From: an uncultured Collinsella sp.
GTDB taxonomy: Bacteria > Actinomycetota > Coriobacteriia > Coriobacteriales > Coriobacteriaceae
Length of the DNA: 64,000 nt
NCBI GenBank assembly: GCA_949285915.1
Contig: CASDZW010000008.1
Coordinates: 1 to 64,000 of the forward strand
Reading direction: 5' to 3'
Below are positions 35,096 to 53,720 of this stretch, piece by piece. The position numbers were made by a program, and so were the translations under genes. Each line of letters opens with the position of its first letter. Position 1 is the stretch's first letter. The notes beneath the pieces are model-generated. The model was not told the origin of the DNA. It worked only from the letters and a program-made list of their open reading frames with translations, and did not search any database.

Positions 35096-35884
35096 ATGGG
35101 AAGTTCATTCGACCGCATCGTCAACCAGAGCTATCGCAACCTCACGGATATCGATATCCAGATTCTGCAGCAGATATCTGACGAGATGGACCTCGTCCCC
35201 AACATGTCCATCGGAGAGCTGGCAGATCGCTGCAACGTTTCCACCGCAACTATCGTGCGCATGACGCGTCACCTGGGATTCGACGGATACAGCGACTTCA
35301 AGTATTTCCTGCGTCATGAAAGCGAGCGTGGGCGTAAGCAGCGGACAAACTCCCTCGCCGTAACCTCGGCCGCGCAGACGGTTGCCGAGGACCTCGCCCA
35401 AACCATACGTTTGTTTGAGCGCACCAATCAGCTCGACGAGCTGTACGCGCGCATGGCATCGGCACGCAAGATATACGCCTTTGGCACTGGTTACGGGCAG
35501 CGCCTCATGCTCGAGGACTTTTGCCGTTGCATGCAGATGATCGGCCGCGATGTGGTTATGATTCCCGCAACGGGCGAGCTCCGGCTTGTAAAGCAGTTTC
35601 TGACCCGTGATGACCTGCTCATCATCGCGTCGCTCTCGGGCTGCATCGACCGCTACCGAGACGTCTTCCAGACCATCAACGTCTGCGGCACACCCATTGT
35701 CTCCATCACGAACCTCGGTAACAACGAACTCGCAAGCTATACCGCCTACAGCCTCTATTTCCAGAACGGCAACATCTTCGACGACATCAACATGTCCTCA
35801 AGCTCGTTTGTCTCCATGCACCTCGTTTTGCACCTACTGTTTGAGGGGTTCAAAGCGTGGCTGGAGCAGAACACCAGCAGTTGA
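35096..35884 (+). CDS. MurR/RpiR family transcriptional regulator
   Basis: A 262-residue sugar-phosphate-sensing regulator. The N-terminal RpiR helix-turn-helix shows SIGELADRCNVSTATIVRMT and LGFDGYSDFKYFLR. The C-terminal SIS domain (about 110-250) includes IYAFGTGYGQRLM and the sugar-phosphate region. ATG 35096 follows GGAGG. It is transcribed away from the PTS and 6-phospho-alpha-glucosidase genes and probably controls them, sensing the imported sugar phosphate. A perfect palindrome with TTTCA/TGAAA arms in the shared region is a likely operator. Whether it activates or represses cannot be told. Confidence 0.92.
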   Translation: MGSSFDRIVNQSYRNLTDIDIQILQQISDEMDLVPNMSIGELADRCNVSTATIVRMTRHLGFDGYSDFKYFLRHESERGRKQRTNSLAVTSAAQTVAEDLAQTIRLFERTNQLDELYARMASARKIYAFGTGYGQRLMLEDFCRCMQMIGRDVVMIPATGELRLVKQFLTRDDLLIIASLSGCIDRYRDVFQTINVCGTPIVSITNLGNNELASYTAYSLYFQNGNIFDDINMSSSSFVSMHLVLHLLFEGFKAWLEQNTSS

Positions 35885-35977
35885 CCGCAGTCACTCATGA
35901 GAGCGGCATACGGCATTTAGGGAAATCCGCAGCACAAAGCAAACCCTTGACCATAGACTCCCGCGTCTAGGGCTTTT

Positions 35978-35985
35978 GCTATACT
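35978..35985 (+). promoter_or_regulatory. extended -10 promoter of the unknown two-gene cassette
   Basis: TG-C-TATACT (TG at 35977-35978, TATACT 35980-35985) lies 31 bases before the start at 36017. A small hairpin TAGAC/GTCTA (35955-35969) precedes it and may end rpiR transcription. Confidence 0.5.
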
Positions 35986-36016
35986 CGCTGGTATACGTAA
36001 CGCAAAGGGGAGAACA

Positions 36017-36925
36017 ATGCCAAAACGCTCCTTAGAAGTCAGGCGGATTTCCTTCAGAAAGAAGCGTGACCGCTCTGACAATCCGCAAAAGTTTGCGCCG
36101 TCCGATCTTAAAGGCACTAACCTCTTAGAGATTTTTTACACATGGCTCAGCGACCCAAACGCCATCCCCTTTATGGAGGATGATTCCGAGGATTGCGTTG
36201 TAATCAAAGAAATTACCCGCCCTAGCTCCCTAACGATCTTTATTGATACGAATTCGGGGAAGCGTGGCGAGGCGGGAGAAGTATATACTCCTGCAAGCAC
36301 AAAGTCGGTATACCACATTACTGAAGAAGAAGCACCCACCGGCCACACCAGAGCCCTACTCTATGTTCCAGAACAAGGGCGCAACGCATTATTCTTTTCA
36401 GAGTATTGCCAGAGAGGAACCGCAGGTACTAGACTAATCAAGCTCTTTAAGAGATGGTTCGACAAAAACTATCCAGATATTCTTATGGAAACCGAATTCG
36501 CTCTCGAGGGACAAGAGTGGTTTGAACATATCTCAGCAGTAAAAAGTATAGAATTTAGAGCCCATCGCTTGCCTGCAAACTCTTACGGGGCGCTCGGCAC
36601 TGAAAAGGGCTCATTTTGTTTTGAAGTAAAGCCGGACAAGGGCAGGTCCTTCCCAGTTAAAACACTGCTCGATATGAAAGGGCAGGAAAAAGTCGCATCG
36701 ACCGTGTTCGGTATCCCAGAGCTGGATGGGGTGGGCGAAAGCCGGTTGCTGGCAACCGTAATCGGAAAAGACGGTCGAAGCAAGAAAGTTGATCTTGCTG
36801 ATGAGGTTATGCCGCATTTCCGTAGAACGCTCAGTGAATCTGGCGAGCCGGAAATATCTAATGATGAGTTTATCGAACGATGCCTGGGCTATTCTGACGA
36901 GATTATTTCTCGTCTTGACGGGTAG
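36017..36925 (+). CDS. protein of unknown function, first gene of a two-gene cassette
   Basis: A 302-residue soluble-looking protein I do not recognise. It begins with a basic segment (MPKRSLEVRRISFRKKRDR) and has no signal peptide or membrane helix. Recognisable stretches are LLEIFYTWLSDPNAIPF, LLYVPEQGRNALFFSEY with GTAGTRLIKLFKRWF, and an acidic C-terminus. ATG 36017 follows AAAGGGGAG. The gene is AT-richer than its rpiR neighbour, and its stop is 9 bases from a four-helix membrane protein gene. It sits between a sugar locus and a reverse-transcriptase defence locus. A sensor or effector partner of the membrane protein is a guess; no enzyme motif is seen. Confidence 0.75.
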   Translation: MPKRSLEVRRISFRKKRDRSDNPQKFAPSDLKGTNLLEIFYTWLSDPNAIPFMEDDSEDCVVIKEITRPSSLTIFIDTNSGKRGEAGEVYTPASTKSVYHITEEEAPTGHTRALLYVPEQGRNALFFSEYCQRGTAGTRLIKLFKRWFDKNYPDILMETEFALEGQEWFEHISAVKSIEFRAHRLPANSYGALGTEKGSFCFEVKPDKGRSFPVKTLLDMKGQEKVASTVFGIPELDGVGESRLLATVIGKDGRSKKVDLADEVMPHFRRTLSESGEPEISNDEFIERCLGYSDEIISRLDG

Positions 36926-36934
36926 ACGATTTTA

Positions 36935-37435
36935 ATGATCCGCCATTATTTGAGAACCCTTTGTTATCTCGGCGATAATGGGGAGAGGAAGCTCAACCTC
37001 CTCCATGCAACAGTCCAAATTGGCGTCCCCATCATAGGCGCAATTGCCTCTTATTTCTTGGGAGTAAGAATTGATCAGCGACAGAATATTTTCTCTCTTA
37101 TTTCGGTCATAACGGGGCTCATGTGCACCGTAGCCGCGTTGCTCTTTGAAACAAGAACCTCTACCCTACGGTCAGATGCACTGACAACATGCCGAGATGA
37201 GAATTCGGTCGACGAGCTTTTCTATCTCTGCTGCTGGCTAATTGTCGTTGGAATTCTCGGCTCCCTTCTTCTTTTCCTTCCAGACCTTAGTTACCCCGTA
37301 TCCATACCTATTCTATTACGCGACTTATATTCATGCGTTTGTATGGCGTTTGTCCTGCATTTCGCAATGTCCATGTCATCCTTTGCCACAAGATTTATTC
37401 GGATTTATATAAGAACCGCTGAACATAGAGATTAG
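36935..37435 (+). CDS. four-helix membrane protein, second gene of the cassette
   Basis: A 166-residue protein with four likely membrane helices: around residues 25-45 (VQIGVPIIGAIASYFLG), 54-71 (LISVITGLMCTVAALLF), 95-113 (CWLIVVGILGSLLLFL) and 128-150 (CVCMAFVLHFAMSMSS). Basic residues flank the ends. I do not recognise a family. It starts 9 bases after the stop of the 302-residue gene, with only a weak ribosome site, so translation is probably coupled. Membrane proteins paired with a cytosolic partner are common as effectors in phage-defence pairs. That is inference from layout and position only. Confidence 0.7.
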   Translation: MIRHYLRTLCYLGDNGERKLNLLHATVQIGVPIIGAIASYFLGVRIDQRQNIFSLISVITGLMCTVAALLFETRTSTLRSDALTTCRDENSVDELFYLCCWLIVVGILGSLLLFLPDLSYPVSIPILLRDLYSCVCMAFVLHFAMSMSSFATRFIRIYIRTAEHRD

Positions 37436-37791
37436 CCGTCTTCTTATCATTTAGGGGCGCGGCTCCAAGCCTCCAGAGATTTCCGCTTAGCTGGCGCCTT
37501 CTTCCATATGGCCGGCATCATCTTCATTGGAACGGAGGCGGGCGTTCCGCTGCGGGGGCCGAGCATCAAACTAGTTGCTATTTGAGCCTACCTTGGAAAC
37601 TTTCAAGCCCGAGAGAGCACGTTGCTCGGGCGAGCGCGTTCAAGCAGATTTGTTTAACTGCCACGATTGTTAAATCAATCTGCTGAATTGAACACGCCGC
37701 CGATGATAAAACCAGTTCCCTTCAAAGGTGACGCTGAAAGCCGTCTATTATCAAAAGAGTTAATCACCATGCCTGCCGAGATTCTACGACC
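37436..37791. other. non-coding 356-base region with hairpins, 3' of the reverse transcriptase
   Basis: No gene is seen. It holds GCCCGAG/CTCGGGC (about 37607-37631) and a larger imperfect hairpin spanning 37638-37693. The arms of the latter share GTTCAA, GCAGATT and TTTAAC with a 4-base bulge and about two mismatches. The region lies between convergent genes and could be a terminator zone or part of a non-coding RNA used by the reverse transcriptase. Confidence 0.4.
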
Positions 37792-39168
37792 TTAAGAAAT
37801 CAATCCCACATCCCTCTCAAGAGATTTCGTTATGCGATGTATCGCCTTTCGATACAGCAGGGCTATTTTTTCGTCTGAGAGGCTCGCTATTGCTCCATCT
37901 CCCAATAATTCCGCAAGCTTATGCCTCATTTCTTCTACGGTCGCGTCATAATTGAACGCCGGAAAATAACTGCTTTCTTTTCCGTTGTATCTCATTTGGT
38001 AATACGCCTTTTTAAAAGATGGAGTGTCAGCAGCTAGCCCGACTCCATAGCGTTTTGCCATTTTACGAACTAAAGCGTCAAGCTGCGCAAGATAGGAAAC
38101 ATCGTTGATTCTCGAATAATAAAAAAGCCATCCATATCTTGCAAAACTGGCACCATCGTACGTGACCTTGCAACCAGTAATTGTCCTATACAGGTCGCCT
38201 CTGCACCTAATCGCGTCATTAACGCTCGATGTGTTTCCGTGGTTCTTTTCCGCTCTGGCTATTTTTTTGATGCCCTGCTCCAGGGAGCGTTCAATAGACC
38301 TCTTGGAAGACGATCGTACCGATATCAGATTGGGAGAAAATCTATACCCGAGATACTCAAAGCAATCCGTTTTAAGATGTCCTCGCACGACCTTCTCTTC
38401 ATTTAGACAAAGGTGCGATCTTCTTGCGAGTGCAGTGATCTTTTTTTCCGCTTTCCCATATTCGGCAACCGAGCAGACTATCAGAATGTCATCAACATAT
38501 CGTCGATAAAAACTCGATGGGAATGCCTTTATCATGCGTCGATCTATTTTTGAGGCAACTAGGTTTGCCAGAGAACTCGAGATGGACAGTCCTTGAGGAA
38601 TTCCCCTTGACCGTATGTAAGATGAGGATCTCTTTACACCCATGGGAACTGTTTGATTTATGATCGCATCCTCGATTAACGACAGGATTTCTCTCTTCCT
38701 TATTTTCGAGCGAAGCGTCTTCATTAGGAGTTCTTGATCAATTGAGCCATAGAAATCTCTGAAATCTATTTTTATGAAACAGTCGTATTTCCCATTTAGG
38801 GCATCCTGCTCTACCTCTGTTATAAGCGATTGCGGATTTGGAGTCTTGCAATCCAATCCAAACAGCTCACTAATAATATTGGACAAGACCTTAAGAACAA
38901 GCCTGTCGCGCACCGTCGGAATGCTAAGAACCCTTGGACAACGATCGGCTCCTTTAGAAAGAAGCACCTGCTTGTATGGAGCGAAATGATATTTCCCTTG
39001 TAAAACTCTCCGAGAAATATCGTTTACATTCTCATCAAGATGCCTTTTGAAGTTCTCCGTTGTGACACGATCAACTCCAACCGTCGTGGAGCCATAAATT
39101 GATTGGAGAAATACTTCGGCTAGATGCTTAGGAGCATAATAGCGCTTAAAGAGCTCAGCTGCTGTCAT
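37792..39168 (-). CDS. reverse transcriptase, defence-associated type
   Basis: A 458-residue RNA-directed DNA polymerase. The palm is complete: IKIDFRDFYGSID with catalytic Asp135, RGIPQGLSISSSLANLVAS (188-206), and YVDD (224-227) with the two further catalytic Asps. The N-terminal GVDRVTTENF and SIPTVRDRLVLKVL resemble group II intron-type enzymes. There is no maturase X or HNH endonuclease domain and no intron around the gene, so it is not a group II intron protein. The last about 150 residues form an unassigned domain. ATG 39168 lies 3 bases after the SLATT gene stop, so the two are coupled. This matches the 'unknown group' (UG/DRT) reverse transcriptases of phage defence; I cannot assign the subgroup. 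Confidence 0.9.
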   Translation of the reverse strand: MTAAELFKRYYAPKHLAEVFLQSIYGSTTVGVDRVTTENFKRHLDENVNDISRRVLQGKYHFAPYKQVLLSKGADRCPRVLSIPTVRDRLVLKVLSNIISELFGLDCKTPNPQSLITEVEQDALNGKYDCFIKIDFRDFYGSIDQELLMKTLRSKIRKREILSLIEDAIINQTVPMGVKRSSSYIRSRGIPQGLSISSSLANLVASKIDRRMIKAFPSSFYRRYVDDILIVCSVAEYGKAEKKITALARRSHLCLNEEKVVRGHLKTDCFEYLGYRFSPNLISVRSSSKRSIERSLEQGIKKIARAEKNHGNTSSVNDAIRCRGDLYRTITGCKVTYDGASFARYGWLFYYSRINDVSYLAQLDALVRKMAKRYGVGLAADTPSFKKAYYQMRYNGKESSYFPAFNYDATVEEMRHKLAELLGDGAIASLSDEKIALLYRKAIHRITKSLERDVGLIS

Positions 39169-39171
39169 CTC

Positions 39172-39756
39172 TTACCTGCATATTATTAGGGAAACGAGAA
39201 CCAACACCAGCGGGATAAGGACGTAGATGAAAACACGCAGACCCCAGATTCTGATTTCTTGATTACGCCGAACTGTTTTATCAGCGCCTTCTTTTCCAAT
39301 GAAATAATCTTCCTTTGTATGGTTTTCTGTACTTGCGACGATGTCGACATAACGATTACCGATCGCATCCATTTCTTTGGTCAGCTCTGTTTCCTCTAGT
39401 CGCGCCTTAGCTGAATCGACCTCAAGCCAAAGTCTCTGCAGTTCGAGGTACACAAACTTCATTCGCTCGGCGCGAACCGCATAGTTTTGTCCGGAAACGT
39501 ACATTGTGCATATGGTGATAATTGCAGCTGAAGCTATCGATAAGAATGAAAGAACATTCTTTGCTGTGTCAGAGGCTCCCGTCAGGAATAATGGCGCCAA
39601 AGAAAGGATAAGGGTCAGGCAGGAATAATAGACCGTAGCGTGTTTCACCAAGGCGTCTAACCCGAGCAAGCGCTTTTCTGCTTGAATTCTAGCCGCACGA
39701 GTATTCTTGATTAGCAAGGGAAGATAATGATCTTTCGGGTGCTCGCAACCGTCCAA
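39172..39756 (-). CDS. SLATT-domain membrane protein
   Basis: A protein of about 194 residues with the SLATT layout. An N-terminal helix (RAARIQAEKRLLGLDALVKHA) is followed by two close membrane helices (about 40-60 and 68-90), a cytosolic helical stretch rich in charged residues (ERMKFVYLELQRLWLEV), and a last hydrophobic segment (VFIYVLIPLVLVLVSLII). SLATT proteins are proposed membrane-pore effectors in conflict systems and are known beside reverse transcriptases. I prefer TTG 39756, which has AGGAG 7 bases upstream; a GTG at 39762 would sit too close to that site. It is the first gene of the pair with the reverse transcriptase. Confidence 0.8.
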   Translation of the reverse strand: MDGCEHPKDHYLPLLIKNTRAARIQAEKRLLGLDALVKHATVYYSCLTLILSLAPLFLTGASDTAKNVLSFLSIASAAIITICTMYVSGQNYAVRAERMKFVYLELQRLWLEVDSAKARLEETELTKEMDAIGNRYVDIVASTENHTKEDYFIGKEGADKTVRRNQEIRIWGLRVFIYVLIPLVLVLVSLIICR

Positions 39757-39774
39757 AGCCACTCTCCTTAATAT

Positions 39775-39898
39775 GGGGACAGTGCTATTCTAAATCGAAA
39801 ATACACTCAGAAGAGTCGCGAGGCAGCCAGAGGCTGTGCTTTACCGCTATTCGAGAATCCTGGTCTCGAATCGGCAGAAAACTGCCAGCGCTGTCCCC
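39775..39898. ncRNA. 124-base multi-hairpin element next to the SLATT-RT operon
   Basis: The ends pair: GGGGACAGTGCT (39775-39786) with AGCGCTGTCCCC (39887-39898), 12 bp with one wobble. Inside are three local hairpins: GCAGCC/GGCTGT (39823-39837), ATTCGAGA/TCTCGAAT (39849-39871) and GGCAG-AAAA-CTGCC (39873-39886). The two non-Watson-Crick pairs are G-U if read on the plus strand and C-A if read on the minus strand, hinting at plus-strand RNA. It lies 18 bases upstream of the SLATT start. Either it is a structured RNA belonging to the system, or a MITE/REP-type element with GGGGACAG ends. Confidence 0.55.
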
Positions 39899-39900
39899 GT

Positions 39901-40090
39901 CTATATTGTAGGCATCAGCCATTGAGTGCTGTCAATCTCTCCAATTGTTCTCAACGGGACATGTGAGATGTCCGAGTCAATCAGCCCCAACAATCTCGCG
40001 CACTCGCAATTGCTTAGGCTTTCCCTAAGCGCTTCGCAGACATAGACCTGGTTATATTCCGTTCGTGCCGGAGTTAGGAGAGGCGTTTGC
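39901..40090 (-). pseudogene. 3' fragment of an unrecognised gene
   Basis: Downstream of rfbB, a minus-strand frame different from rfbB's reads about 63 plausible codons ending at TAG 39903-39901: ARTEYNQVYVCEALRESL, then a Cys-rich NCECARLLGLIDSD and TQWLMPTI. It has no start codon after the rfbB stop and is AT-richer than rfbB, so it looks like the tail of a gene cut by a rearrangement at the end of the polysaccharide operon. The family is unknown. Confidence 0.35.
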
Positions 40091-40093
40091 TCC

Positions 40094-41134
<1,041 letters not shown>

Positions 41135-41308
41135 TTACCACACAATCCTTTCAACGTTGAACATCTGTTCAAGTAGCCAACCCGACACAAACTAATTTAT
41201 CCAACTATTTGGTGGAGATAGTGGTGGTGGAAGGGGAATTGACAATATAGAATCGAGTGGCTCCAGCTTAGTTATGTAATTCTCATCGATAGATTTAAAC
41301 CCATTGCG

Positions 41309-42355
41309 CTAATTGAACGAAATACGTGTTTTCCCAGTTAGAACCGGTGTGTAACGATTCATTAACCAATTAACTGGAAACATTAAAGCAATGACCACCA
41401 AGGCGACAAGCACCGGTTGTGGAGAAATGTCAAAGATGTTGTTTAGGCTATTCTCAATGAAGCGCATAACCGGAACATGGAATGCCAAGCTTCCCAAGGT
41501 GTTGCTTCCAAACCACCGAAGCGCTTGACAGGTCGGTGATGCAATCAGGACCATCGCGATTCCGGAGGATATCACCACTGCGGCCATCAATCCTATAGGC
41601 GGCAAACCGATGTCGTTGCGCATTAGAGAAACATTTTCTCCAGAAATACGCACAGAGTACATCGCGACGGTAAACCCGAGCAAAATCACAACCATACCGA
41701 GGACGGCAATTCGAAGTTTTTGATTCCGCGGAGCAGACGCCATAGAGTTTGACAGCTTAATCGCATGTGGCATCAGACCCCCCCCGAACAGGAAGAAAAA
41801 CATGCACAGTGGCACGGCGTTTAGAGTCCAGGGTAGCGTTTTAATATCGCAGATTTTTAGAAAGCATCCCACACATAGACAGACGAGCGCAACAACAAGA
41901 GGGTTAAGACGCCCTTCCTCATCTTTTTCGATAACCCTATAAACAAGCCAAGTCGCAACTGTAGTAAGAAACAAAGTTGGCAAAAACCATAAAGCCCCAT
42001 TAGCCATAGGCTTAAGAAGTTGATTGGCATAATATAAGCCCGCTAGGATCGAATCTCCCGATGAGGAGCTATCACCAATTACGCGCCAATTGATGTACCA
42101 TAACGGAATGTTAACTGAATACAGCAAGAAATATGGCAGCAACAATGATGCGAAATACTTCTTCAAGCAGTCTATGAACTTTCGATATTTTTCAGCATGA
42201 AATAGAGCTCCGGAAATCATAAAGAACAACGGCACATGAAACGAATAACATAATGAGGACAACATACCGGGATTGGCAGCAGGATGACCGCAGATGATAG
42301 CTATCATTGCTACCCCGCGTAAGGAATCCACCCATTCGAATCGCTTGCCCGACAT
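41309..42355 (-). CDS. acyltransferase family 3 membrane protein
   Basis: A 348-residue protein with about ten membrane helices of the acyltransferase-3 (OafA/NodX-like) family, which transfers acyl groups such as acetyl onto sugars at the membrane. The N-terminus VDSLRGVAMIAIICGHP holds the conserved R and His, followed by SFHVPLFFMISG. I start at ATG 42355 (MSGKRFEW), with GGGGTG upstream; the frame extends into the preceding gene. It is AT-rich compared with the chromosome. Its place after wzy suggests it modifies the repeat unit or finished glycan. Substrate unknown. Confidence 0.88.
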   Translation of the reverse strand: MSGKRFEWVDSLRGVAMIAIICGHPAANPGMLSSLCYSFHVPLFFMISGALFHAEKYRKFIDCLKKYFASLLLPYFLLYSVNIPLWYINWRVIGDSSSSGDSILAGLYYANQLLKPMANGALWFLPTLFLTTVATWLVYRVIEKDEEGRLNPLVVALVCLCVGCFLKICDIKTLPWTLNAVPLCMFFFLFGGGLMPHAIKLSNSMASAPRNQKLRIAVLGMVVILLGFTVAMYSVRISGENVSLMRNDIGLPPIGLMAAVVISSGIAMVLIASPTCQALRWFGSNTLGSLAFHVPVMRFIENSLNNIFDISPQPVLVALVVIALMFPVNWLMNRYTPVLTGKTRISFN

Positions 42356-42377
42356 AGTAATCACCCCGGTTGCAATG

Positions 42378-43619
42378 TTATTGTCCCTCTTTTTGCAGAA
42401 GATAGCTTCTCCCCGAAGAATCTTGTTTGCCCGCATTCAGCAAAACCGGTGCGAGACAGAGTAAGTACGCATCATAAACCAGTTGCAAGAGCTGGGGTGT
42501 TAGCATCATGTGGATGAACATCGCGCACAATACGATATGCAAATATGGGTCGTCAATCCTTCTGCAAAGTAAATTGAAACCATACAGAAGAACAATAAGT
42601 ACTATAGGACCATAGTTGAGAAGTATGTTTATGTATCCGTTATCAACAATATTAAAGTTATCCCTACTTTCTCCTTCAGCCAGATCCTCCCAGTTTTTCC
42701 ACTCGATATGTTGTCCCAACAACTCAAACCCATACTCATCAACCGCGTCGTTGGCAAGTGCAAGTCGATCGCTTAATAAGTTATTCAACGTCTTAAGACA
42801 GGCATTGCTCGGTGTGTACGTGTAGGCAAGGACAAGCGATAGCGCCAAAAGAACCGGGGGCAGCACAATGGTCCCCCATCGGAGAATAAACCTAAGCACA
42901 TTATTAAATTTACTACGGAGAAGCCCGCCACATACGAGGATAAGAACAACAAGGATGATTTCAGTCCTTGTAGCGGTAAGCAAATAAAAAAAAATGTTTA
43001 TCAAAAAGATGGCAACATACTCAATGATACGAAGCTGATTAGATCGCGTGTAAACAAATAGCCCAGACAAATAGTATGCAAGTATTGCGGGGTAGGTTGG
43101 GAATGTGAAACCGAGGGAGTACCTTATACTATCTGTCGATGCTCGATAATTTACCATAGTCGGACTTGTTCCCGTAAGAGCGAGCACCACGATTAGAGCG
43201 ATAAGAACAGACTGACTTACTATAATCCATTTTGCGATTTCTCGAAATGGTATACGGTATGCTCCAACAACAATTATTTCATAATGGAGCAACGTACGAG
43301 AGTCATTGAAGTGTGATACGAGTAGCAGAAGCCCTGTAAGCAACACCAAGCATCGCACGCCGCGTTTCGAATAGTATCGATAATCACGAGCAAATATTAT
43401 CTTCACAACAATTAGTAATATACATATATACCTTATGGCGGTAAAAACCAAAGAAGGAAAACATTGCCGTAGTAGCGTTTTCTCGTCAATCATTGTGACA
43501 GATAGGTAACAGATAAATGAAACAATATAGAGGACTGTCCATCGTTTTTCGGTTTGCACGGCATTAAGATCAACGTCTACTGTCCCACATCGATTGATAA
43601 CATTATCCCAGAAAGACAT
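42378..43619 (-). CDS. O-antigen/capsule polymerase-like membrane protein (Wzy)
   Basis: A 413-residue protein with about eleven predicted helices, a long extracytoplasmic loop (around PSNACLKTLNNLLSDRLALA, followed by the WKNWEDLAEGES region) and no strong motif. Such polymerases are poorly conserved, and I assign it by topology, by the DNGYINILLNYG stretch common in Wzy proteins, and by its place between the flippase and an acyltransferase. It would join lipid-linked repeat units outside the membrane. It is one of the most AT-rich genes here, as usual for serotype-specific genes. ATG 43619 follows GGGGGG. Confidence 0.75.
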   Translation of the reverse strand: MSFWDNVINRCGTVDVDLNAVQTEKRWTVLYIVSFICYLSVTMIDEKTLLRQCFPSLVFTAIRYICILLIVVKIIFARDYRYYSKRGVRCLVLLTGLLLLVSHFNDSRTLLHYEIIVVGAYRIPFREIAKWIIVSQSVLIALIVVLALTGTSPTMVNYRASTDSIRYSLGFTFPTYPAILAYYLSGLFVYTRSNQLRIIEYVAIFLINIFFYLLTATRTEIILVVLILVCGGLLRSKFNNVLRFILRWGTIVLPPVLLALSLVLAYTYTPSNACLKTLNNLLSDRLALANDAVDEYGFELLGQHIEWKNWEDLAEGESRDNFNIVDNGYINILLNYGPIVLIVLLYGFNLLCRRIDDPYLHIVLCAMFIHMMLTPQLLQLVYDAYLLCLAPVLLNAGKQDSSGRSYLLQKEGQ

Positions 43620-43634
43620 GGCAACCCCCCAGAA

Positions 43635-45137
43635 TTAATGCTTTTTAAAATAAGGCGAGCGAGTCGACGACGAACCATCAGAACCCGCCAAAAGGAACTT
43701 ACCGAATATGCGTGCGTAATGGGGGTTTCGGGTTAACACACAATAGAGTAGGGTTGCAACCGAATAGAATGCGGCCCCCATCACAACCTCCAATATGAGG
43801 GAAACAACCCCGAGCCCCATCGTTGCCAGAATGAAAGGTGAAGTTAAACGGACCAGTAAACACATTGCCGCCCCAATAAAACAACAGGGTATTGATTGGA
43901 TGGCATAGGTGAAAAGAGGCAATTCACGCCTCACCTCAAACACTTGAACCACCAAAATGGTAACTTCTGCAGCAACGGTTGCAATTGCTGTGCCGAGAGC
44001 TGCAAACAGCGGAATCAGCACAAGATTTAAAATCACATTCACCGCAGCGCCCGCAATAAGCGAGAGTGTGTATTCTCGATCACGTTGCGAGGGCAACAGA
44101 TACTGCTTGCCAATCACATTTGTCACGCAGATAACAGGAATGATTCCACACATGACCACCATCAACAGCTCGCAGGGATCGTACCCATCTCCCAGAAAAA
44201 CCGGAACGAACTCTGGTGCAACGGCGAGGATACCGAACGCAAACGCAAAGGCACAAACCAGCATGAACCAGAGCGAGGTGCCCAGAGCCGAAACTGCCTC
44301 TTCACGTCGCCGCTCCGTGAGCAGTGAAACCATGCGCGGCATCATGACCGTGCCCAACGCCGTTATGACATGCAGCGGCATGCGGCTGACCTGCTCAGCG
44401 TACTGGAAGTAGCCAGACTGCGACATGTCCGACATCGAACCCAGCATGATCTTGTCGAGCGACGTGTACAGGCTCACCGCAATCACAGGGATGAAGAGCC
44501 CGATGTTCGGCTTGAAGTGAGCATGGACCTCACGCCAATTTGGACGGTATGGATCAACGTAACGACGAACGAACGGCCAGACAAGAACCATGTTCACAAA
44601 GTTTGAACCCGCTGCAGCTAGTACATACAGCCATACATCATCAGGTTGGTGTACAAACCCAAAGATGATAACGAGCGAGGCAAGCTTGGTCGCAAAGCTC
44701 CGCACCGTCGGAATCTTGAACTCTTCGCACCCAAACAGCAGCCACGAGATATCGCCGACCGCACTGAGCACCCAGAGACCCCATGTGAGAGAAACTATCA
44801 GACCGCCGGCATGTACAACAATCACATACACTAAATATGCCGCCGCGACTACCACGGCTACGCAAAGCTGCGAGCCATACGCACTCCAAAACGCGCGCGA
44901 GCGCGCGGCGCGGTCTTCACCGCAAAGCGCAATCACCCGCACGCCGTAGGTCGACATGCCGAGCGTAGCGAACATCACGAAATAGTTCGCAATGGACTGC
45001 GTATAGGAGAAGACGCCCGTTTGCGAGGCACCAAGCACGCGCGACAGATAGGGCGCCGTGACAAGCGGCGTGATGACCAGAAGAATCTGGTATGCCGAGT
45101 TAAGCAGGAAGTTGACCTTGACGCTGCGTTTCGCCAC
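43635..45137 (-). CDS. oligosaccharide flippase (Wzx-type)
   Basis: A 500-residue flippase of the MOP superfamily that moves undecaprenyl-linked repeat units across the membrane. Features: VNFLLNSAYQILLVITPLVT and APYLSRVLGASQTGVFSYTQ at the N-terminus, fourteen likely helices, and SLDKIMLGSMSDMSQSGYF mid-protein. Start GTG 45137 follows AGGAGG and overlaps the stop of the SDR gene by one base. Only 15 bases separate it from the polymerase gene. Together with Wzy and the sugar transferase it defines a Wzy-dependent pathway. Confidence 0.92.
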   Translation of the reverse strand: MAKRSVKVNFLLNSAYQILLVITPLVTAPYLSRVLGASQTGVFSYTQSIANYFVMFATLGMSTYGVRVIALCGEDRAARSRAFWSAYGSQLCVAVVVAAAYLVYVIVVHAGGLIVSLTWGLWVLSAVGDISWLLFGCEEFKIPTVRSFATKLASLVIIFGFVHQPDDVWLYVLAAAGSNFVNMVLVWPFVRRYVDPYRPNWREVHAHFKPNIGLFIPVIAVSLYTSLDKIMLGSMSDMSQSGYFQYAEQVSRMPLHVITALGTVMMPRMVSLLTERRREEAVSALGTSLWFMLVCAFAFAFGILAVAPEFVPVFLGDGYDPCELLMVVMCGIIPVICVTNVIGKQYLLPSQRDREYTLSLIAGAAVNVILNLVLIPLFAALGTAIATVAAEVTILVVQVFEVRRELPLFTYAIQSIPCCFIGAAMCLLVRLTSPFILATMGLGVVSLILEVVMGAAFYSVATLLYCVLTRNPHYARIFGKFLLAGSDGSSSTRSPYFKKH

Positions 45138-46183
45138 TATACGGCCTCCTTGAGGTAGGCCACAAGGCGCTGCAATGCCTCCGGCATGGCAACAGCCGGT
45201 TTCCAGCCCAGCGCACGCAACCGCCCGGCATCAAGGAACAACTTGGTATCGGGCGCGAATCCTGATTGATTTTGCTCGTCTAGTTCAAACTTGAGCCGCA
45301 CACCCGCCGTACCAACCGTATCGATTGCCAGCTGCGCCATCTCGGCAATCGTCATATGACACGCCTCGTTGGCAACGTTGTAGGCATAACCTGACTCGCC
45401 TCGAGACAGCAGAAGTAGAAGCGCAGCAACCGCATCGGATGCGTACACGTAGTTCGCCTCAGATTGACCGCGCGTCTTCAAGACAACATCCTCCCCTGCC
45501 GCCGCAGCGCGGGCAAAGGCAACAACGGCGCGATTCTCACCAGGAAGCACGCCGGCTCCAAACGTCTGTGCCAAGCGCGCAATACACGCATGAACACCAT
45601 GCTGCACACCGTAAGCAACGCACAAGTTCTCGCAGAGCCGCTTGCCCTCCGGATAGCACGACCGTACCGCAAGGGGATCGATGAAGCCCAGGATGTCTTC
45701 GCTAGCACGAACACCCTCGGTGAGCGTTCCGTACACCTCCATGGAAGAAAGGTACACGACCTTTGCCTGCTTTTCTGCAGCAAGTTGCAAAACGGCATGC
45801 GTGCCATTCAATGAGAGGTCAATCACATCAACTGGACGTTCGACCATGATTCGAGACGTTGTAACTGCGGCACCGTGAACGATGTAGTCAACTGGGCCCT
45901 CAAAATTCAGGGCTTCCGTAGCAAGATTGCAGACAACAAAAGCGACCTCGTTTGCACGCTGACCAAATATCATCCGAGCCTTTGTCGGATCGCGCACCAC
46001 ACCGATCGGCTTGATGGCAAGACCATACCGCTCGTTGGCGTACAAAAACGCTTTAATCAGTAGAGAGCCCACCAAACCGGTCGCCCCTGTGATCAATACG
46101 GAAGCATTGTTGAAATAGCGGAAGAGTTGCTCGTCAATATGCTCAAAATCTTCATCGAGCGTGGGTGTCCACATCCCTCTCAT
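45137..46183 (-). CDS. NAD-dependent epimerase/dehydratase (extended SDR)
   Basis: A 348-residue SDR. NAD-binding ITGATGLVGSLL (about 31-42), HGAAVTTS, LSSMEVYG with the active-site region, and the CYPEGKRLCENL Y-x3-K. Such SDRs lie beside IspD/TarI-like cytidylyltransferases in pneumococcal-type capsule loci, where the pair makes CDP-linked polyols. The same role is suggested here by the adjacent cytidylyltransferase gene 8 bases upstream. The substrate is not evident. Start ATG 46183 has GGTGAG upstream; a second ATG (MWTPT, 46174) with GAGAGGG is equally possible. Confidence 0.85.
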   Translation of the reverse strand: MRGMWTPTLDEDFEHIDEQLFRYFNNASVLITGATGLVGSLLIKAFLYANERYGLAIKPIGVVRDPTKARMIFGQRANEVAFVVCNLATEALNFEGPVDYIVHGAAVTTSRIMVERPVDVIDLSLNGTHAVLQLAAEKQAKVVYLSSMEVYGTLTEGVRASEDILGFIDPLAVRSCYPEGKRLCENLCVAYGVQHGVHACIARLAQTFGAGVLPGENRAVVAFARAAAAGEDVVLKTRGQSEANYVYASDAVAALLLLLSRGESGYAYNVANEACHMTIAEMAQLAIDTVGTAGVRLKFELDEQNQSGFAPDTKLFLDAGRLRALGWKPAVAMPEALQRLVAYLKEAV

Positions 46184-46191
46184 AGACTCAC

Positions 46192-46917
46192 CTATTCAAT
46201 ACCGTAAATCTGACGATTCTCACGAGCATCCAAGATCGCACGCATTGAGAAAAAGTCATCTGGCGTCGTGATCTTGATGTTCTCGTCGGGGCCTTCGACA
46301 AGATACAGGCTGTGCCCATACGCCATCATCATCGATGCTGAATCAATGAAGTCGCTGCGACCCTCTGCTAAAGCACGATGATGAGCGGCAATAATCTCAT
46401 CGAGCCAGAAGCTTTGCGGTGCGCGAGCCAACCGCGTTTGGGAGCGATCGGGCACGCTGGAAATCTTCTCGTCGTCATCGACTTCGAGCACGGTCTCTTT
46501 CACCTTAACCGAGGTGATTGCCGAACCGTGCTCTTTGACCGAAGCGATGTTGTCGGAGATGGTCCGCTGCGTAATAAGCGGACGCACCCCATCGTGGATA
46601 AGCACAATACTCCGCTCACCATCGGCAAGCTGTTCCGCAGCGCAGAGCCCAGCATATATTGAGAGCTGACCCGTTACGCCACCGGGGACAACGCTGCGAA
46701 CTTTGCTCAAACCGTAACGAGCAAGAAGCGCTTCGCAATACTCAATCCAATCGGGATGACAAGCGACAACGATTGCATCGATATCTTCATGCTGCTGAAA
46801 GAGCTCAGCAGTATGAACGATAATCGGTTTTCCGTGAATCTCGAGGAACTGCTTGGGCAAATCCTTCGAATGCATGCGGCTACCAACGCCGCCGGCAAAC
46901 AACACCGCAATATTCAT
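46192..46917 (-). CDS. IspD/TarI-family cytidylyltransferase
   Basis: A 241-residue nucleotidyltransferase. LFAGGVGSRM (about 6-15), LPKQFLEIHGKPIIVHT, HDGVRPLI and the catalytic Lys region VKVKETVLEV fit the IspD/TarI group. The sequence fits D-ribitol-5-phosphate cytidylyltransferase-like proteins better than housekeeping IspD, and the location in a glycan operon with a TagB/F-like polymerase supports CDP-polyol supply (inference). ATG 46917 follows GGAAGGAG and overlaps the preceding gene's stop by 4 bases, so translation is coupled. The upstream nine codons of the open frame are not used. Confidence 0.87.
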   Translation of the reverse strand: MNIAVLFAGGVGSRMHSKDLPKQFLEIHGKPIIVHTAELFQQHEDIDAIVVACHPDWIEYCEALLARYGLSKVRSVVPGGVTGQLSIYAGLCAAEQLADGERSIVLIHDGVRPLITQRTISDNIASVKEHGSAITSVKVKETVLEVDDDEKISSVPDRSQTRLARAPQSFWLDEIIAAHHRALAEGRSDFIDSASMMMAYGHSLYLVEGPDENIKITTPDDFFSMRAILDARENRQIYGIE

Positions 46918-48113
46918 GATGCGAGCTCCTTCCCAAAGCCGCAATGCTCGTTGATAATGTGCGCGACCGCTTCGCAGGCGTGTCCCGTTTCAAACGAGCC
47001 GAGTGCCTCATGATGGCGTTCCATGCGTTGGCGGAAATCCACCCCAACGAAGTCCATGATCGCTTTAACAAGCTGCTCCGTCGTCTCGCACACGGGGAAA
47101 CCCCACTTATGGATGTCAACGTCAAAGCCGCGGTCCGCCTCATATTGAGCAAGATCGGGCGTGTACAAGAAGCACGGCCGATAGGTGAACGAGTAATCCC
47201 AGATAAGTGAGGAGTAGTCGGTAATTACGACATCGCATGCCAGCAGTAGACCTTGCATATCGCGATAGTCGTTGAGCGAGCAGTCGAAATCCTCCGACGC
47301 AAAACCCGAGAAATAGTGTCCGCGAAACGCCATGATGACGTTCCGCTCAAAACGCTTGACAACCGCCGCTCGGACGGCAGCAACATCCAAGCCCTGAGCC
47401 TCGCCGGCAAAATCCCGCCATGTTGGTGCATATAATACGAGAGCGTCAGATTCGCTGAGACCGAGCTCTTTGCGTATGTGAACACGCTCGGACGCATCGT
47501 TGCGGACCAGACGATCGTTTCGTGGCATGCCGCACTCTAAAATTGTTCCAGCAAATGCATATTGACCACGAACAACCTCTCGAGAGAAAAACGCGCTGCT
47601 AGAAATGAAGTAATTGTAGCGGTGGAACTGTCGCTCTGTTATATACCGCTGAATTGGCATCCCTGTGTGCAATGCGGTGCCAACCTTTTTATAACAACCT
47701 CCACCATGCCATGTTTGAATCTGCAACTGATCCCAGCGGGCAGGCAGTTCGTTTGAACGAGGGCCATTTGTTACGAGTACGCTTGCCAAACAAGCGTATT
47801 TCCAATGCTCAGAAGAGCGATAGCGCACGACTTCTGTATCAGGCCGAGCGGCAAGGTCTGCCCAATCTTCTGGCCGTTCCGCAACCCACACATACCGGTA
47901 GCGGTGATGAAACGCTGCCTGAAGATATTCATATATTGCTCGCGGATTGCAATCAAGACGGGTGCCGTGAAAGCTCTCAAGCAGTACGAGATTGGATTGC
48001 GTGGGCATCGAGGCATAGCGAAGCAACAGCCCACCCTGGAGCATGCGTGCACCGATATACTTTATGCCACGCTGCAGCTCTGCGACTACACCTGTTTTTC
48101 TTCGCTCTCGCAA
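46914..48113 (-). CDS. CDP-glycerol/ribitol glycerophosphotransferase family protein (TagB/TagF-like)
   Basis: A 399-residue enzyme of the teichoic-acid polymerase family, which transfers polyol-phosphate from a CDP-polyol. Motifs: QTWHGGGCYKKVG (the catalytic His region), YFISSSAFFSRE, GMPRNDRL, VLYAPTWRDF, and VITDYSSLIWDYSF near the end. It should work at the inner face of the membrane. The start is a TTG at 48113 with AAGG 8 bases upstream; no ATG is nearby. LicD lies upstream and the cytidylyltransferase downstream, so this enzyme probably adds the polyol-phosphate made by its neighbours. Confidence 0.9.
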   Translation of the reverse strand: MRERRKTGVVAELQRGIKYIGARMLQGGLLLRYASMPTQSNLVLLESFHGTRLDCNPRAIYEYLQAAFHHRYRYVWVAERPEDWADLAARPDTEVVRYRSSEHWKYACLASVLVTNGPRSNELPARWDQLQIQTWHGGGCYKKVGTALHTGMPIQRYITERQFHRYNYFISSSAFFSREVVRGQYAFAGTILECGMPRNDRLVRNDASERVHIRKELGLSESDALVLYAPTWRDFAGEAQGLDVAAVRAAVVKRFERNVIMAFRGHYFSGFASEDFDCSLNDYRDMQGLLLACDVVITDYSSLIWDYSFTYRPCFLYTPDLAQYEADRGFDVDIHKWGFPVCETTEQLVKAIMDFVGVDFRQRMERHHEALGSFETGHACEAVAHIINEHCGFGKELAS

Positions 48114-48135
48114 GTCCGGCCCTTAAATTGACTAG

Positions 48136-49077
48136 TTATTTTATATCTTTATCGAATGAATTGGCGGGGATCGCGTCACCTAAATCGAACTCAAGGGCAA
48201 TATGGCGCTCCTGCTTGTCTGACGGAGGGGGTGTCATATAATCGGGACCATACAGTGCTTTCATATATTTTTCTGTGTCCCTCGGCAACGGAACTCTCAA
48301 GCCTTCAAACTCTCCAAATGAAACGGGAAAATAATCATTGCGGTAATACAATTCGCCAAAATAATGCTTTCGGCCGAGAGGGATTGATATATATCTAGAC
48401 CGTCCATTATGAACACAACCGTTCCAAGCATCCCAAAGGCCGCACCAACGTTCCACCGTTAGAAATGAAAAAAAGAAACCTATTGTGGCTTTCAATTTGA
48501 AAGCACGAGAGGTTTTGACATCTCCTTCAACAAGCGAAAGGTATTCTTTCTTATGCTTCCAAAAGCGCCGACAGGAATAACAAAACCCAACACCCATTGA
48601 AAACATACCATGGAGACAGCGCAGCAATGTATTGTCGGGAACATCTTCGATAATAAATACGTCGACATATACCCCACATTCAATGCCGTCAATATCTTCT
48701 TTACTCCTCAAGATGGTTCCACGGCGACGGATGCGGGGAAATGCCAATTCATATCCGCTTGTCTTGCCGGGTAGTTGGATAGAATACTTCTGAGGGAAAC
48801 AATTGAGCAAAGCGTCGACAAAGCAGCGATAATCTGACCTCTTAAGGTTAATATCAAGATCATCGTCCCAAGGAATAAATCCATGATGGCGCAGGGCTCC
48901 GAGGCAATTGCCTCCCCCCAAGGTATATTCAATCCCCGTGCGTTTACAAATATCGTCAATATCTTTCAGCATATCCAACAGGACAAGATGCAGCTGCTGC
49001 AACCTTTCACCATCCAGCTGGATAACATCGACATCATTAGAAATGTGCTTGAATGCCTCAAGTGTTGATAAACCCAT
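48136..49077 (-). CDS. LicD family phosphotransferase
   Basis: A 313-residue LicD-family protein. The core YTLGGGNCLGALRHHGFIPW is followed by a DDD-type metal site, then a variable region and the late GPDYMTPPP. LicD proteins transfer phosphorylcholine or other phospho-groups from CDP-linked donors to glycans. Phosphocholine is only one option here, as no licA, licB or licC is in the window; polyol phosphate would fit the neighbouring CDP-polyol genes. The gene is AT-richer than flanking housekeeping genes. It lies 12 bases after the GT2 gene and 22 before the TagB-like gene. Confidence 0.9.
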   Translation of the reverse strand: MGLSTLEAFKHISNDVDVIQLDGERLQQLHLVLLDMLKDIDDICKRTGIEYTLGGGNCLGALRHHGFIPWDDDLDINLKRSDYRCFVDALLNCFPQKYSIQLPGKTSGYELAFPRIRRRGTILRSKEDIDGIECGVYVDVFIIEDVPDNTLLRCLHGMFSMGVGFCYSCRRFWKHKKEYLSLVEGDVKTSRAFKLKATIGFFFSFLTVERWCGLWDAWNGCVHNGRSRYISIPLGRKHYFGELYYRNDYFPVSFGEFEGLRVPLPRDTEKYMKALYGPDYMTPPPSDKQERHIALEFDLGDAIPANSFDKDIK

Positions 49078-49089
49078 AGCTAAACCTGC

Positions 49090-49929
49090 TTATCCGTTAT
49101 AGTCCAACAACTCTGGAGCGTGCAAAAGGTAGCGGTGTTTGCGATAGTAGTACGCAAGCCCTTTGATATGTTCAAGGTTGGTATGTGAGAGCAGTTTTTT
49201 ATGAGATAGGCGCTGATACTCATGGATAATGCGCGCACCCGGCACAAAGGCGACCTGATAACCTGCTTTCCAGCAGCGGAGACACCAATCAACATCTTCA
49301 GGGGCGTAAAAAATATTCTCGTCGAATAGTCCAGTCTCAGCAAAGACCGAACTCGGGACTAACCAACAGGCTGATAAGAGATAACCAACTTTCTGAATCC
49401 CCCGTAATGGCACAGAGGATGGCACTTCCGCATTTTCAGCCCACCGACGCACGACGCCAATTGGTATCACCTTGGCAAGTTTAATTGTAAACGTCGGAAG
49501 ATTGCGCCCTGAAAGCTGCTTACTACCTGCGGAATTTACCATCGACGGACCGACGACACCTAAGGAGCGATGCTCTGCGAGCGCGTTTGCCATAACTTCG
49601 AATGCAGTTTGATTGACCACGGTGTCACTGTCGAGGATGCAAATATAATCTGTTCTGGCTATTGCACAGCGAAGCGCGTGGTTTCGCGGAGCGGTAGTCC
49701 CAGCGTTATTAGCGCGATATAACACATGCACGTTCGGGTACATACTGCTATATCGTTCAAGGATTTCCCGCGTGCCGTCTGTCGAGCCATTCTCTTCAAC
49801 ATACACATCCAATTCACGGCACATTAGACTCAGCACCGAATCCAAACAAGCGCGAATAAACTTCTCAGAGTTCCAAGTGAGAATGATGAATGCGACGCGA
49901 GCATCGCTGAAACTGGGTCGCTCCATCAC
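49090..49929 (-). CDS. glycosyltransferase family 2
   Basis: A 279-residue inverting glycosyltransferase with GT-A fold. The N-terminal FIILTWNSEKFIRACLDSVL, VEENGSTDGTREIL, the nucleotide-metal DSDTVVN (DxD-like) and the late YAPEDVDWCLRCWKAGY with the catalytic Asp are typical. It would add one sugar to the lipid-linked repeat unit. A GTG at 49929 and an ATG at 49926 are both possible starts behind GGGGAGGGG; they overlap the sugar transferase stop. Donor and acceptor cannot be read. No membrane helix is seen. Confidence 0.9.
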   Translation of the reverse strand: MMERPSFSDARVAFIILTWNSEKFIRACLDSVLSLMCRELDVYVEENGSTDGTREILERYSSMYPNVHVLYRANNAGTTAPRNHALRCAIARTDYICILDSDTVVNQTAFEVMANALAEHRSLGVVGPSMVNSAGSKQLSGRNLPTFTIKLAKVIPIGVVRRWAENAEVPSSVPLRGIQKVGYLLSACWLVPSSVFAETGLFDENIFYAPEDVDWCLRCWKAGYQVAFVPGARIIHEYQRLSHKKLLSHTNLEHIKGLAYYYRKHRYLLHAPELLDYNG

Positions 49930-50576
49930 TGACCCCTCCCCATCGCCTTAAAAGTGCGTACAAAGATGCGGAAGTCGAGTCCCAAGCTCGCATGGCGGGC
50001 GTAAAACACTTCGAGCATTTGGCGCTCGTTGTTCTCCCATGTGGCATTGTTGCGCTCGGTAACCTGCCACCAGCCAGTGATACCGGGCTTCACCGATAGC
50101 ACAAGGTCGCGTGCATCTCCGTACTCCCAGGTCTCTTCTTCGGTAACCGGACGTGGACCAATGACGGATAGCTCGCCTTTAAGCACATTGAAGAACTGCG
50201 GCAGCTCATCCAAAGAAGTGCGTCGCAGCAACTTGCCAATCTTGGTGATGCGCGGATCATTATCGAGCTTCTGCTCGCGTTCCCATTGGGCAAGCTGATC
50301 AGGATTAAGATAGCGATCGGGATGCTCATGCGCATCCGCCACCATGGTGCGAAGCTTATAGATGTAGATGGGCTTACCGTTGAGACCAATACGACGCTGT
50401 TTAAAAATGGGGCTACCGGGTGTCTCGTATGCAACAGCAGCGCAAACAACCGCTAGGGGAATGGCGATGACAACGCATACACCCGCGGAAAACACGATAT
50501 CGAACGTGCGCTTTATAGCGCGATAGCCGACACCTCCCGGCTTAGGGGCGGCGACCGTATCGTCCGGCTCCGGCAA
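49926..50576 (-). CDS. undecaprenyl-phosphate sugar phosphotransferase (initiating)
   Basis: A bacterial sugar transferase of the WbaP/WecA-unrelated polyprenyl-phosphate hexose-1-phosphate family. It has one membrane helix (about 26-50), then FKQRRIGLNGKPIYIYKLRTM, RRTSLDELPQFFNVLKGE, IGPRPV and KPGITGWWQV. It loads the first sugar on undecaprenyl phosphate. The first conventional start is a TTG at 50576 with no ribosome site. The frame is open to 50630, where an ATA codon has a perfect AGGGGAAGG 8 bases before it; an AUA start would add 18 residues. The gene is second in the operon, after the antiterminator. The sugar is not evident. Confidence 0.92.
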   Translation of the reverse strand: MPEPDDTVAAPKPGGVGYRAIKRTFDIVFSAGVCVVIAIPLAVVCAAVAYETPGSPIFKQRRIGLNGKPIYIYKLRTMVADAHEHPDRYLNPDQLAQWEREQKLDNDPRITKIGKLLRRTSLDELPQFFNVLKGELSVIGPRPVTEEETWEYGDARDLVLSVKPGITGWWQVTERNNATWENNERQMLEVFYARHASLGLDFRIFVRTFKAMGRGQ

Positions 50577-50668
50577 ATGGAACGAACCGCGCTGGTTAAG
50601 CGTTGCTTTGTTGTTGCCGTTGCTGTTTATAGTAGAGACCTTCCCCTACCCTGCACATCAAGCAGCTC

Positions 50669-51181
50669 TTACTCATTCTTTCGGACTATCTCGAGCCCGA
50701 TGCGAACCGTTTTCTGTCTCCCAAACATATGCAAATCCACGTAAGCCAGCCGTTTGTGCCGATTGATTTTGATGATCATCGCCTCGTGCCCCTTCAAAGG
50801 GCCTTCGGTCACTATCACCCTGTCACCCTCTATTACTCCTTGACTCATCTCCACCAAATGCTTGTCTGCGTCGGCGAAGGTGTTGAGCCATAAGAGCTCG
50901 TAAGGGGCGAGTGGAATGAATTGATCGTTGCTGCCCAAAAGGCGCATGAACACCGGAATAGCGCGCATACGGTTACCTAGCTGCTCAGGATTGTCTGTCC
51001 TTACAAACAGATATCCCGGGAACAGAAGCTCCCTTACCCTGCACCACTCACCTTCTTTGCGCTTCATAAGCTCAAATATGGGGAGAAAGCACTCATCCAT
51101 GCAGTCCGATGCATGTTTGTACAGCAGACTCCGAGCTGTGCTCTCACGCCCGCCAATAACCTGCACCACATAAACGCCCAC
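50669..51181 (-). CDS. NusG-family antiterminator (LoaP/RfaH-type)
   Basis: A 170-residue NusG paralogue. The NGN domain covers YVVQVIGGRESTARSLL and LLFPGYLFVRTD. The KOW domain starts near 120 (GDRVIVTEGPLKGHEAMI). Such specialised paralogues start long operons and keep RNA polymerase elongating through them; LoaP does so for Gram-positive polysaccharide and antibiotic clusters. Its position as first gene of an 11-kb glycan operon fits well. GTG 51181 follows AGGAGG. The housekeeping nusG normally lies between secE and rplK, which is not the case here. Confidence 0.88.
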   Translation of the reverse strand: MGVYVVQVIGGRESTARSLLYKHASDCMDECFLPIFELMKRKEGEWCRVRELLFPGYLFVRTDNPEQLGNRMRAIPVFMRLLGSNDQFIPLAPYELLWLNTFADADKHLVEMSQGVIEGDRVIVTEGPLKGHEAMIIKINRHKRLAYVDLHMFGRQKTVRIGLEIVRKNE

Positions 51182-53679: not shown

Positions 53680-53720
53680 AGCTTATCGGCTGACAAACGT
53701 TCTTTCTCGGCTTTAATCGG

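What the first reader, a model, noticed from the sequence alone, without database searches (positions are those of the whole stretch)
37792..39756. SLATT membrane protein coupled to a reverse transcriptase: likely anti-phage RT system
Seen: a complete RT palm with YVDD (residues 224-227), no maturase or endonuclease domain, and its ATG only 3 bases after the stop of a SLATT-like protein with two plus one hydrophobic segments. Known: defence RTs of the unknown groups (UG/DRT) act with partner effectors and often with a non-coding RNA, and SLATT proteins are proposed pore-forming effectors seen beside RTs. Inference: the RT makes a DNA product that controls the SLATT pore. The last about 150 RT residues match no domain I know.
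Basis: partly seen in the sequence, partly recalled or inferred. Interest (0 to 1): 0.75.

Follow-up and report, generated by a model that had tools for sequence, protein, structure and literature searches.

The report
Complete DRT10 telomerase-like anti-phage system

Summary
The RT is UG17 (PADLOC 8.8e-125; next 2.1e-35), the partner SLATT_5. UG17 was named DRT10 in an October 2025 preprint (PMC12632851): ncRNA + SLATT + RT, protein-primed tandem-repeat DNA from a telomerase-like template. The third part is here too: a covariance model built only from two relatives finds a 128-nt structured RNA at 39773-39900 (-), just upstream of SLATT (E 7.5e-18); 19 of 34 pairs show changes on both sides. 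The RT ends in Ser458, where the published priming Ser/Tyr lies; 111 of 121 distinct homologues end in Ser or Tyr. A-B-A' (ATTT-TCG-ATTT) predicts (CGAAAAT)n, but is not beyond chance in this single loop. The RT groups with Coriobacteriia UG17 enzymes; Rfam shows no group II RNA. How the DNA acts on SLATT is unproven here and in the preprint. Verdict: a complete, probably ordinary member of a known, interesting family. In passing: the pair next door may be a divergent RexA/RexB system, on fold evidence alone.

The parts
37792..39168 (-). UG17/DRT10 reverse transcriptase, 458 aa
   Evidence: PADLOC RT_UG17 8.8e-125; tree; AF2 pLDDT 94.6
38488..38499 (-). YVDD catalytic motif, residues 224-227
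   Evidence: invariant in alignment A1
37795..37797 (-). codon of Ser458, last residue, predicted priming residue
   Evidence: 111 of 121 distinct homologues end in Ser or Tyr; published priming Ser456/Tyr444
39172..39756 (-). SLATT_5 membrane protein, 194 aa from TTG 39756 (the ORF extends to GTG 39762)
   Evidence: Pfam SLATT_5 2e-26, NCBIfam SLATT_5 116.5 bits over cut-off 60, three hydrophobic segments
39764..39769 (-). AAGGAG, likely ribosome-binding site of the SLATT gene
   Evidence: sequence
39773..39900 (-). DRT10 ncRNA: long outer stem P1, four inner hairpins, template loop
   Evidence: model R2 built without the window, E 7.5e-18; fold z -4.56; covariation
39887..39898 (-). P1 5' strand, GGGGACAGCGCT
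39775..39786 (-). P1 3' strand, AGCACTGTCCCC (11 of 12 pairs standard)
39805..39816 (-). SL5 hairpin ACTC-TTCT-GAGT, presumed template boundary
   Evidence: role from PMC12632851
39792..39802 (-). candidate A-B-A' template ATTT-TCG-ATTT; predicts (CGAAAAT)n cDNA
   Evidence: not significant in this single loop
39905..39935 (-). possible promoter TTGACA-N19-TACAAT just before P1
   Evidence: sequence; not listed by the promoter scan, which allows 16-18 nt; weak

Best explanation
The locus is a complete DRT10 (UG17) anti-phage system laid out on the minus strand as ncRNA - SLATT - RT. Most likely mechanism: the RT binds the 128-nt ncRNA and starts DNA synthesis from its own C-terminal Ser458; it copies a short template in the loop after hairpin SL5, the new DNA end re-anneals at a downstream repeat of the template start (A'), and the cycle repeats, giving a long single-stranded tandem-repeat DNA attached to the RT (predicted unit CGAAAAT; an 11-nt register, AATCGAAAATA, is the second choice). 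This DNA gates the SLATT membrane protein, which kills or arrests the infected cell. Shown here by sequence: RT class, SLATT partner, a covarying structured RNA in the right place, terminal Ser. Shown in print for E. coli members: defence, ncRNA templating, protein priming. Inferred: that this copy is active, its repeat unit, and the DNA-SLATT link. The confidence is for DRT10 identity with templated repeat synthesis; for the DNA-SLATT link alone I would say 0.6.
For: RT_UG17 414.9 bits against 121 for the next family. SLATT_5. Model R2, from L015 and L016 only, finds 39773-39900 (-) at E 7.5e-18, against 0.66 for the only other hit up to E 10 in 64 kb. Given 94 sources (the window and 93 of the 173 loci then held), at E 0.1 it hits exactly five: the window and the four SLATT-first Coriobacteriia loci L015-L018, each just upstream of SLATT (for L018 judged by eye, as its open frame runs further up). 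On those five, 97.5% of cells pair, 19 of 34 pairs change on both sides, 0 of 500 shuffles as high. Ser458 is terminal; 111 of 121 distinct homologues end in S or Y and the other 10 have one within the last four residues. SLATT beside 118 of 127 distinct RTs. Tree: UG17 is one side of a branch (support 87, with the unassigned L007 inside), window within six Coriobacteriia rows (98). Family-wide A-B-A' excess: mean A 3.26 against 2.76, sd 0.11, 0 of 500 shuffles. Published behaviour of UG17.
Against: The window's own A-B-A' is not beyond chance (P 0.39; 0.19 near SL5). Model R1 from nine Firmicutes ncRNAs finds nothing in the window, although it does find right-placed hits in L074 (8.4e-5) and L054 (3.5e-4) of other clades. 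L020, in the same RT clade, has RT before SLATT, ends in Tyr and is not hit by R2 or R3. The plus strand of the RNA region folds at least as well (z -5.41). RT residues 456-458 have pLDDT under 50, so the model does not place Ser458 in the active site. No activity was tested.
Confidence: 0.9

Rival explanations
1. A group II intron maturase or its ORF remnant beside an unrelated membrane gene.
For: Group II RTs are among the nearest solved structures by fold (Z 27.2, 354 residues, rmsd 2.4, model 5-394) and NCBIfam group_II_RT_mat scores 132.8 bits.
Against: That score is below the cut-off of 300. No Rfam match in 64 kb at gathering thresholds. No maturase domain in Pfam. The tree puts it with UG17, apart from 3 group II RTs.
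Confidence: 0.02
2. A DRT10 system as above, with one stated direction of control: the tandem-repeat DNA holds SLATT inactive in healthy cells and phage infection releases it by lowering the DNA (guard model). This is a special case of the best explanation, not an exclusive rival.
For: In the preprint the cDNA is made constitutively and falls on infection, and its authors raise this model.
Against: Not tested here; the direction of control is open in the preprint.
Confidence: 0.45
3. A decayed or silent copy of DRT10.
Against: The parts look intact: open frames, catalytic motif, terminal Ser, ribosome-binding site, 11 of 12 P1 pairs.
Confidence: 0.06

Closest known systems
DRT10 / UG17 systems Eco1-3 (PMC12632851, preprint, Oct 2025)
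   Same: RT class, SLATT partner, ncRNA just upstream of SLATT with a large central stem and four smaller stem-loops, template loop after SL5, C-terminal priming residue (Ser456 in a 456-aa RT; here Ser458 in 458).
   Different: Host is in Coriobacteriia; RNA sequence differs (a Firmicutes model does not find it); RT 52% identical to its nearest relatives, 42% to the next, 28-38% to the others aligned; activity untested; whether one of the three published ncRNA models covers it could not be tested.
DRT9 (solved structures 9vma, 9nlv, 9ioa, 9vku, 9nlx)
   Same: Fold match that includes the C-terminal helical part (9vma Z 22.5, 371 residues, rmsd 3.5); ncRNA-templated repetitive synthesis (PMC12632851).
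   Different: About 20% identity; DRT9 copies a poly-U tract and primes from internal tyrosines.
DRT3a
   Same: Second-best PADLOC family (121 bits); its repeat synthesis is called analogous to DRT10 in PMC13174585 (passages).
   Different: Works with a second RT, DRT3b; no second RT stands in this operon; NCBIfam Drt3a score 105.8 below cut-off 200.
Telomerase
   Same: Template plus alignment segment with repeat addition, by analogy through DRT10 (PMC12632851).
   Different: Eukaryotic, extends chromosome ends from DNA primers; only a 16.7-bit sequence match (E 0.028) to solved telomerase.

Membership tests
DRT10 (UG17) | RT of the UG17 group | tested here: met
   RT_UG17 8.8e-125 over 1-457; inside UG17 in the tree
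DRT10 (UG17) | adjacent SLATT-domain protein | tested here: met
   SLATT_5 2e-26, ending 3 bases before the RT start; 118 of 127 distinct homologues have one; 82% in print (PMC8934634)
DRT10 (UG17) | ~137-nt structured ncRNA upstream of SLATT: central stem with four smaller stem-loops | tested here: met
   39773-39900 (-), E 7.5e-18 with a window-free model, P1 plus four hairpins, covariation
DRT10 (UG17) | A-B-A' pattern in the template loop after SL5 | tested here: inconclusive
   ATTT-TCG-ATTT present, 2 nt after SL5, but P 0.19-0.39 alone; family-wide excess 0 of 500 shuffles
DRT10 (UG17) | C-terminal Ser or Tyr primer | tested here: met
   Ser458 is the last residue; 111 of 121 distinct homologues end in S/Y. 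Position only; priming itself is not testable here
DRT10 (UG17) | protein-primed tandem-repeat cDNA and phage defence | not testable with these tools
   needs cells
Group II intron RT | intron RNA (domains V/VI) around the ORF | tested here: not met
   no Rfam match in the window at gathering thresholds
Group II intron RT | score over NCBIfam cut-off, maturase domain | tested here: not met
   132.8 bits against 300; Pfam RVT_1 only
Retron | retron RT | tested here: not met
   retron_St85 50.6 bits against cut-off 235; separate branch from 8 retron-like RTs
DRT3 | Drt3a RT with a Drt3b partner | tested here: not met
   Drt3a 105.8 bits against 200; none of the other three proteins searched between 36017 and 39762 is an RT. 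A Drt3b elsewhere in the genome was not sought

The most novel reading that the evidence does not exclude
The Coriobacteriia DRT10 systems are a distinct ncRNA subtype of DRT10, and the island that carries this one pairs it with a second, divergent RexAB-like membrane exclusion system; the two may be a jointly kept defence cassette with two DNA-controlled membrane effectors.
Probability: 0.2. Interest if true: 0.55.

Novelty: new member of a known kind. Interest (0 to 1): 0.38.

Why it matters
DRT10 is the bacterial enzyme that its discoverers link to the origin of telomerase, and how its repeat DNA works with SLATT is the open question. A complete system from Coriobacteriia, with a covarying ncRNA and a stated repeat prediction, gives a further test of the template rule. 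As a discovery in itself it is an addition to a described family.

Tried and rejected
Scanning genome contigs with the single RT found no relative; the alignment query then found 323 stretches, of which the best 80 were kept, and 111 in viral contigs, of which 79 loci were kept. So all counts over homologues come from capped lists, chosen by likeness to the RTs then in hand. Firmicutes model R1: no hit in the window; over 92 loci it hit its own nine, L074 and L054 at the right place, and weaker or reverse-strand hits. MAFFT alignment of all five Coriobacteriia ncRNAs misplaced L017 and L018, so R2 was built from the two close ones and the rest aligned to it. R3, built from the five, found no further ncRNA: its two extra hits (E 0.32, 0.64) lie away from the SLATT start. 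Distant blastn of the locus against E. coli genomes: no match. Promoter and terminator scan: counts below the shuffle means. Group II, retron and DRT3 readings were rejected. Kiwa was considered for the neighbouring pair on a KwaA match of E 0.02 and dropped: ten proteins of its relatives gave no KwaA or KwaB match at E 0.1. A profile comparison of the 302-aa family with lambda RexA gave nothing (probability 0.3%), so that link rests on fold alone. Rows left out of counts: L007, L008 (distant RTs), L071, L116, L136, L144 (odd or cut ends), 31 of 109 distinct candidate stems scoring under 26, 9 without a clear SL5, 1 duplicate loop. The tree used 32 hand-picked UG17 loci of those held, plus the window.

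L007 and L008 pass the E 1e-50 family cut, but in the tree L008 sits with group II RTs and L007 on a long branch, and neither has SLATT.

Full report
What is there. On the minus strand lie a SLATT gene (start 39756 or 39762, end 39172) and a 458-aa RT (39168-37792), 3 bases apart. The RT has YVDD at 224-227 and only RVT_1 in Pfam; the partner is SLATT_5 with two plus one hydrophobic segments. PADLOC calls the RT RT_UG17 (8.8e-125) and the partner RTasSLATT (2.9e-32). The genome as held (43 contigs, 82% complete) has one UG17 match.

Known family. [quoted passage not shown] A preprint of October 2025 (PMC12632851; abstract, introduction, results and discussion read; passages of legends) names UG17 'DRT10'. 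Three E. coli systems gave phage defence; in its tests the RT catalytic residues, SLATT and a 137-nt ncRNA upstream of SLATT were required; the RT primes from a C-terminal Ser (or Tyr) and makes tandem repeats from an A-B-A' template, as telomerase does. In the library held, 'DRT10' stands in 6 papers, 2 of them on defence RTs, and 'UG17' with 'reverse transcriptase' in 8; these listings show no other study devoted to it.

The RNA. Rfam has no match in the window at gathering thresholds. Upstream of SLATT, 39775-39901 (-) folds with z -4.56 into a long outer stem, GGGGACAG...CTGTCCCC, with inner hairpins; the plus strand folds at least as well (z -5.41), so strand is decided by gene context and by the model, not by energy. 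A model built only from Olsenella uli (L015) and Thermophilibacter provencensis (L016) finds 39773-39900 (-) at E 7.5e-18. Given the window and 93 loci it finds, at E 0.1, exactly the window and L015-L018, E 1.1e-39 to 0.011. On these five, 97.5% of cells pair, 19 of 34 pairs change on both sides, and slid structures give 34-60% paired; the alignment was fitted to the structure, which favours it. A model from nine Firmicutes ncRNAs finds right-placed hits in two loci of other clades (L074, L054) but nothing in the window.

Template. The loop after SL5 reads GTATTTTCGATTTAGAAT. ATTT-TCG-ATTT is an A-B-A' of period 7, predicting (CGAAAAT)n. In shuffles a repeat of 4 or more occurs in 39% of loops, 19% near SL5, so alone it proves nothing. 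A TA at either end allows an 11-nt register. Across 68 distinct loops of the family the longest A near SL5 averages 3.26 nt against 2.76 (sd 0.11), and 27 of 68 have 4 or more against 19% expected, 0 of 500 shuffles each; related loops are not independent.

Priming residue. The RT ends LERDVGLIS. Of 121 distinct homologues, 93 end in Ser and 18 in Tyr; the other 10 have one within the last four residues. The last three residues of the model have low confidence.

Placement. In a quick tree of 54 RTs (33 UG17 with the window, 8 Drt2-like, 8 retron-like, 3 group II, 2 unassigned), UG17 is one side of a branch (SH-aLRT 87; the unassigned L007 lies inside), the window groups with L015 and L016 (99) in a Coriobacteriia set of six (98), beside three Clostridia (96). 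UG17 at E 1e-50 occurs in 6 of 395 genomes of the order, the window's included. SLATT is next to 118 of 127 distinct RTs (113 before, 5 after the RT); 7 of the other 9 reach a contig end, and the last two, L007 and L008, are not clear UG17.

Fold. The AF2 model (pLDDT 94.6) matches group II RTs (Z 27, to residue 394-398 in the best rows), a DGR RT (Z 27, to 386) and DRT9 (Z 22.5, 371 residues, to 457). The five DRT9 entries listed are the ones that consistently reach the C-terminus; one LINE-1 entry does too. Fold similarity shows no function.

Setting. RT and SLATT are 43.5% and 46.0% G+C against 59.7% for the window. A congener (G051) is 94% identical up to base 35867 and 90-96% again from 53857; between, only 51947-52889 matches, at 63%. 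Another (G048) also loses similarity at 35867. So the locus lies in a variable region. The host's family (Coriobacteriaceae) is inferred from G057, of the same family, whose contig equals one of Enorma burkinafasonensis in length and content.

Neighbour. The plus-strand genes 36017-36925 and 36935-37435 are a separate finding: see Noticed in passing.

How it works. Shown by sequence here: the parts, their order, covariation, terminal Ser. Shown in print for E. coli members: defence, templating, priming. Inferred: activity of this copy, its repeat unit, and the link from DNA to SLATT, which the preprint also leaves open while noting that cDNA falls on infection.

Verdict.

Noticed in passing
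window 36017-36925 (+) and 36935-37435 (+): A 302-aa soluble protein without any family match and a 166-aa membrane protein (about four helices) with only weak ones (relatives), kept as a pair in 10 of 10 loci inspected, the window included (L179-L188; found in 11 of 395 genomes of the order). The AF2 model of the 302-aa protein (pLDDT 81.3) aligns to yeast Iml3 (Z 9.7, 120 residues, rmsd 3.2), phage lambda RexA (Z 8.7, 222 residues, rmsd 16.7), human CENP-N (Z 7.5, 124 residues, rmsd 3.5) and RdgC (Z 5.6, 177 residues, rmsd 6.1); the RexA structure paper groups RexA with RdgC, IML3 and CHL4 (PMC11077077, passages; that CENP-N is kin of CHL4 is recalled). With a membrane protein in the RexB position this may be a divergent RexAB-type exclusion pair. 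Against: Foldseek had nothing at E 0.001, best Z of 7-8 is common for models without relatives, and the sequence profile does not match RexA.
   Followed up: partly
L006 and L020 (uncultured Coriobacteriaceae, RUG12554; the same contig): Same UG17 clade, but the RT comes before SLATT and ends in Tyr instead of Ser; a long stem with inner hairpins lies upstream of the RT, so the RNA may stay first when the proteins swap order. Models R2 and R3 do not hit it.
   Followed up: partly
window 35868-53856: Variable region: similarity to two congeners ends at 35867 and, in one, resumes at 53857. It holds both defence-like pairs and, by eye from the ORFs, polysaccharide-type genes.
   Followed up: partly
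L181, L184: RexA-like pairs next to genes that look by eye like DNA methyltransferases (recalled motifs, no family search), as in defence islands.
   Followed up: no
L140, L141, L143 (IMG/VR contigs): RT-first, SLATT-after loci with a different C-terminus (HADEGFAY and the like), perhaps another DRT10 branch.
   Followed up: no
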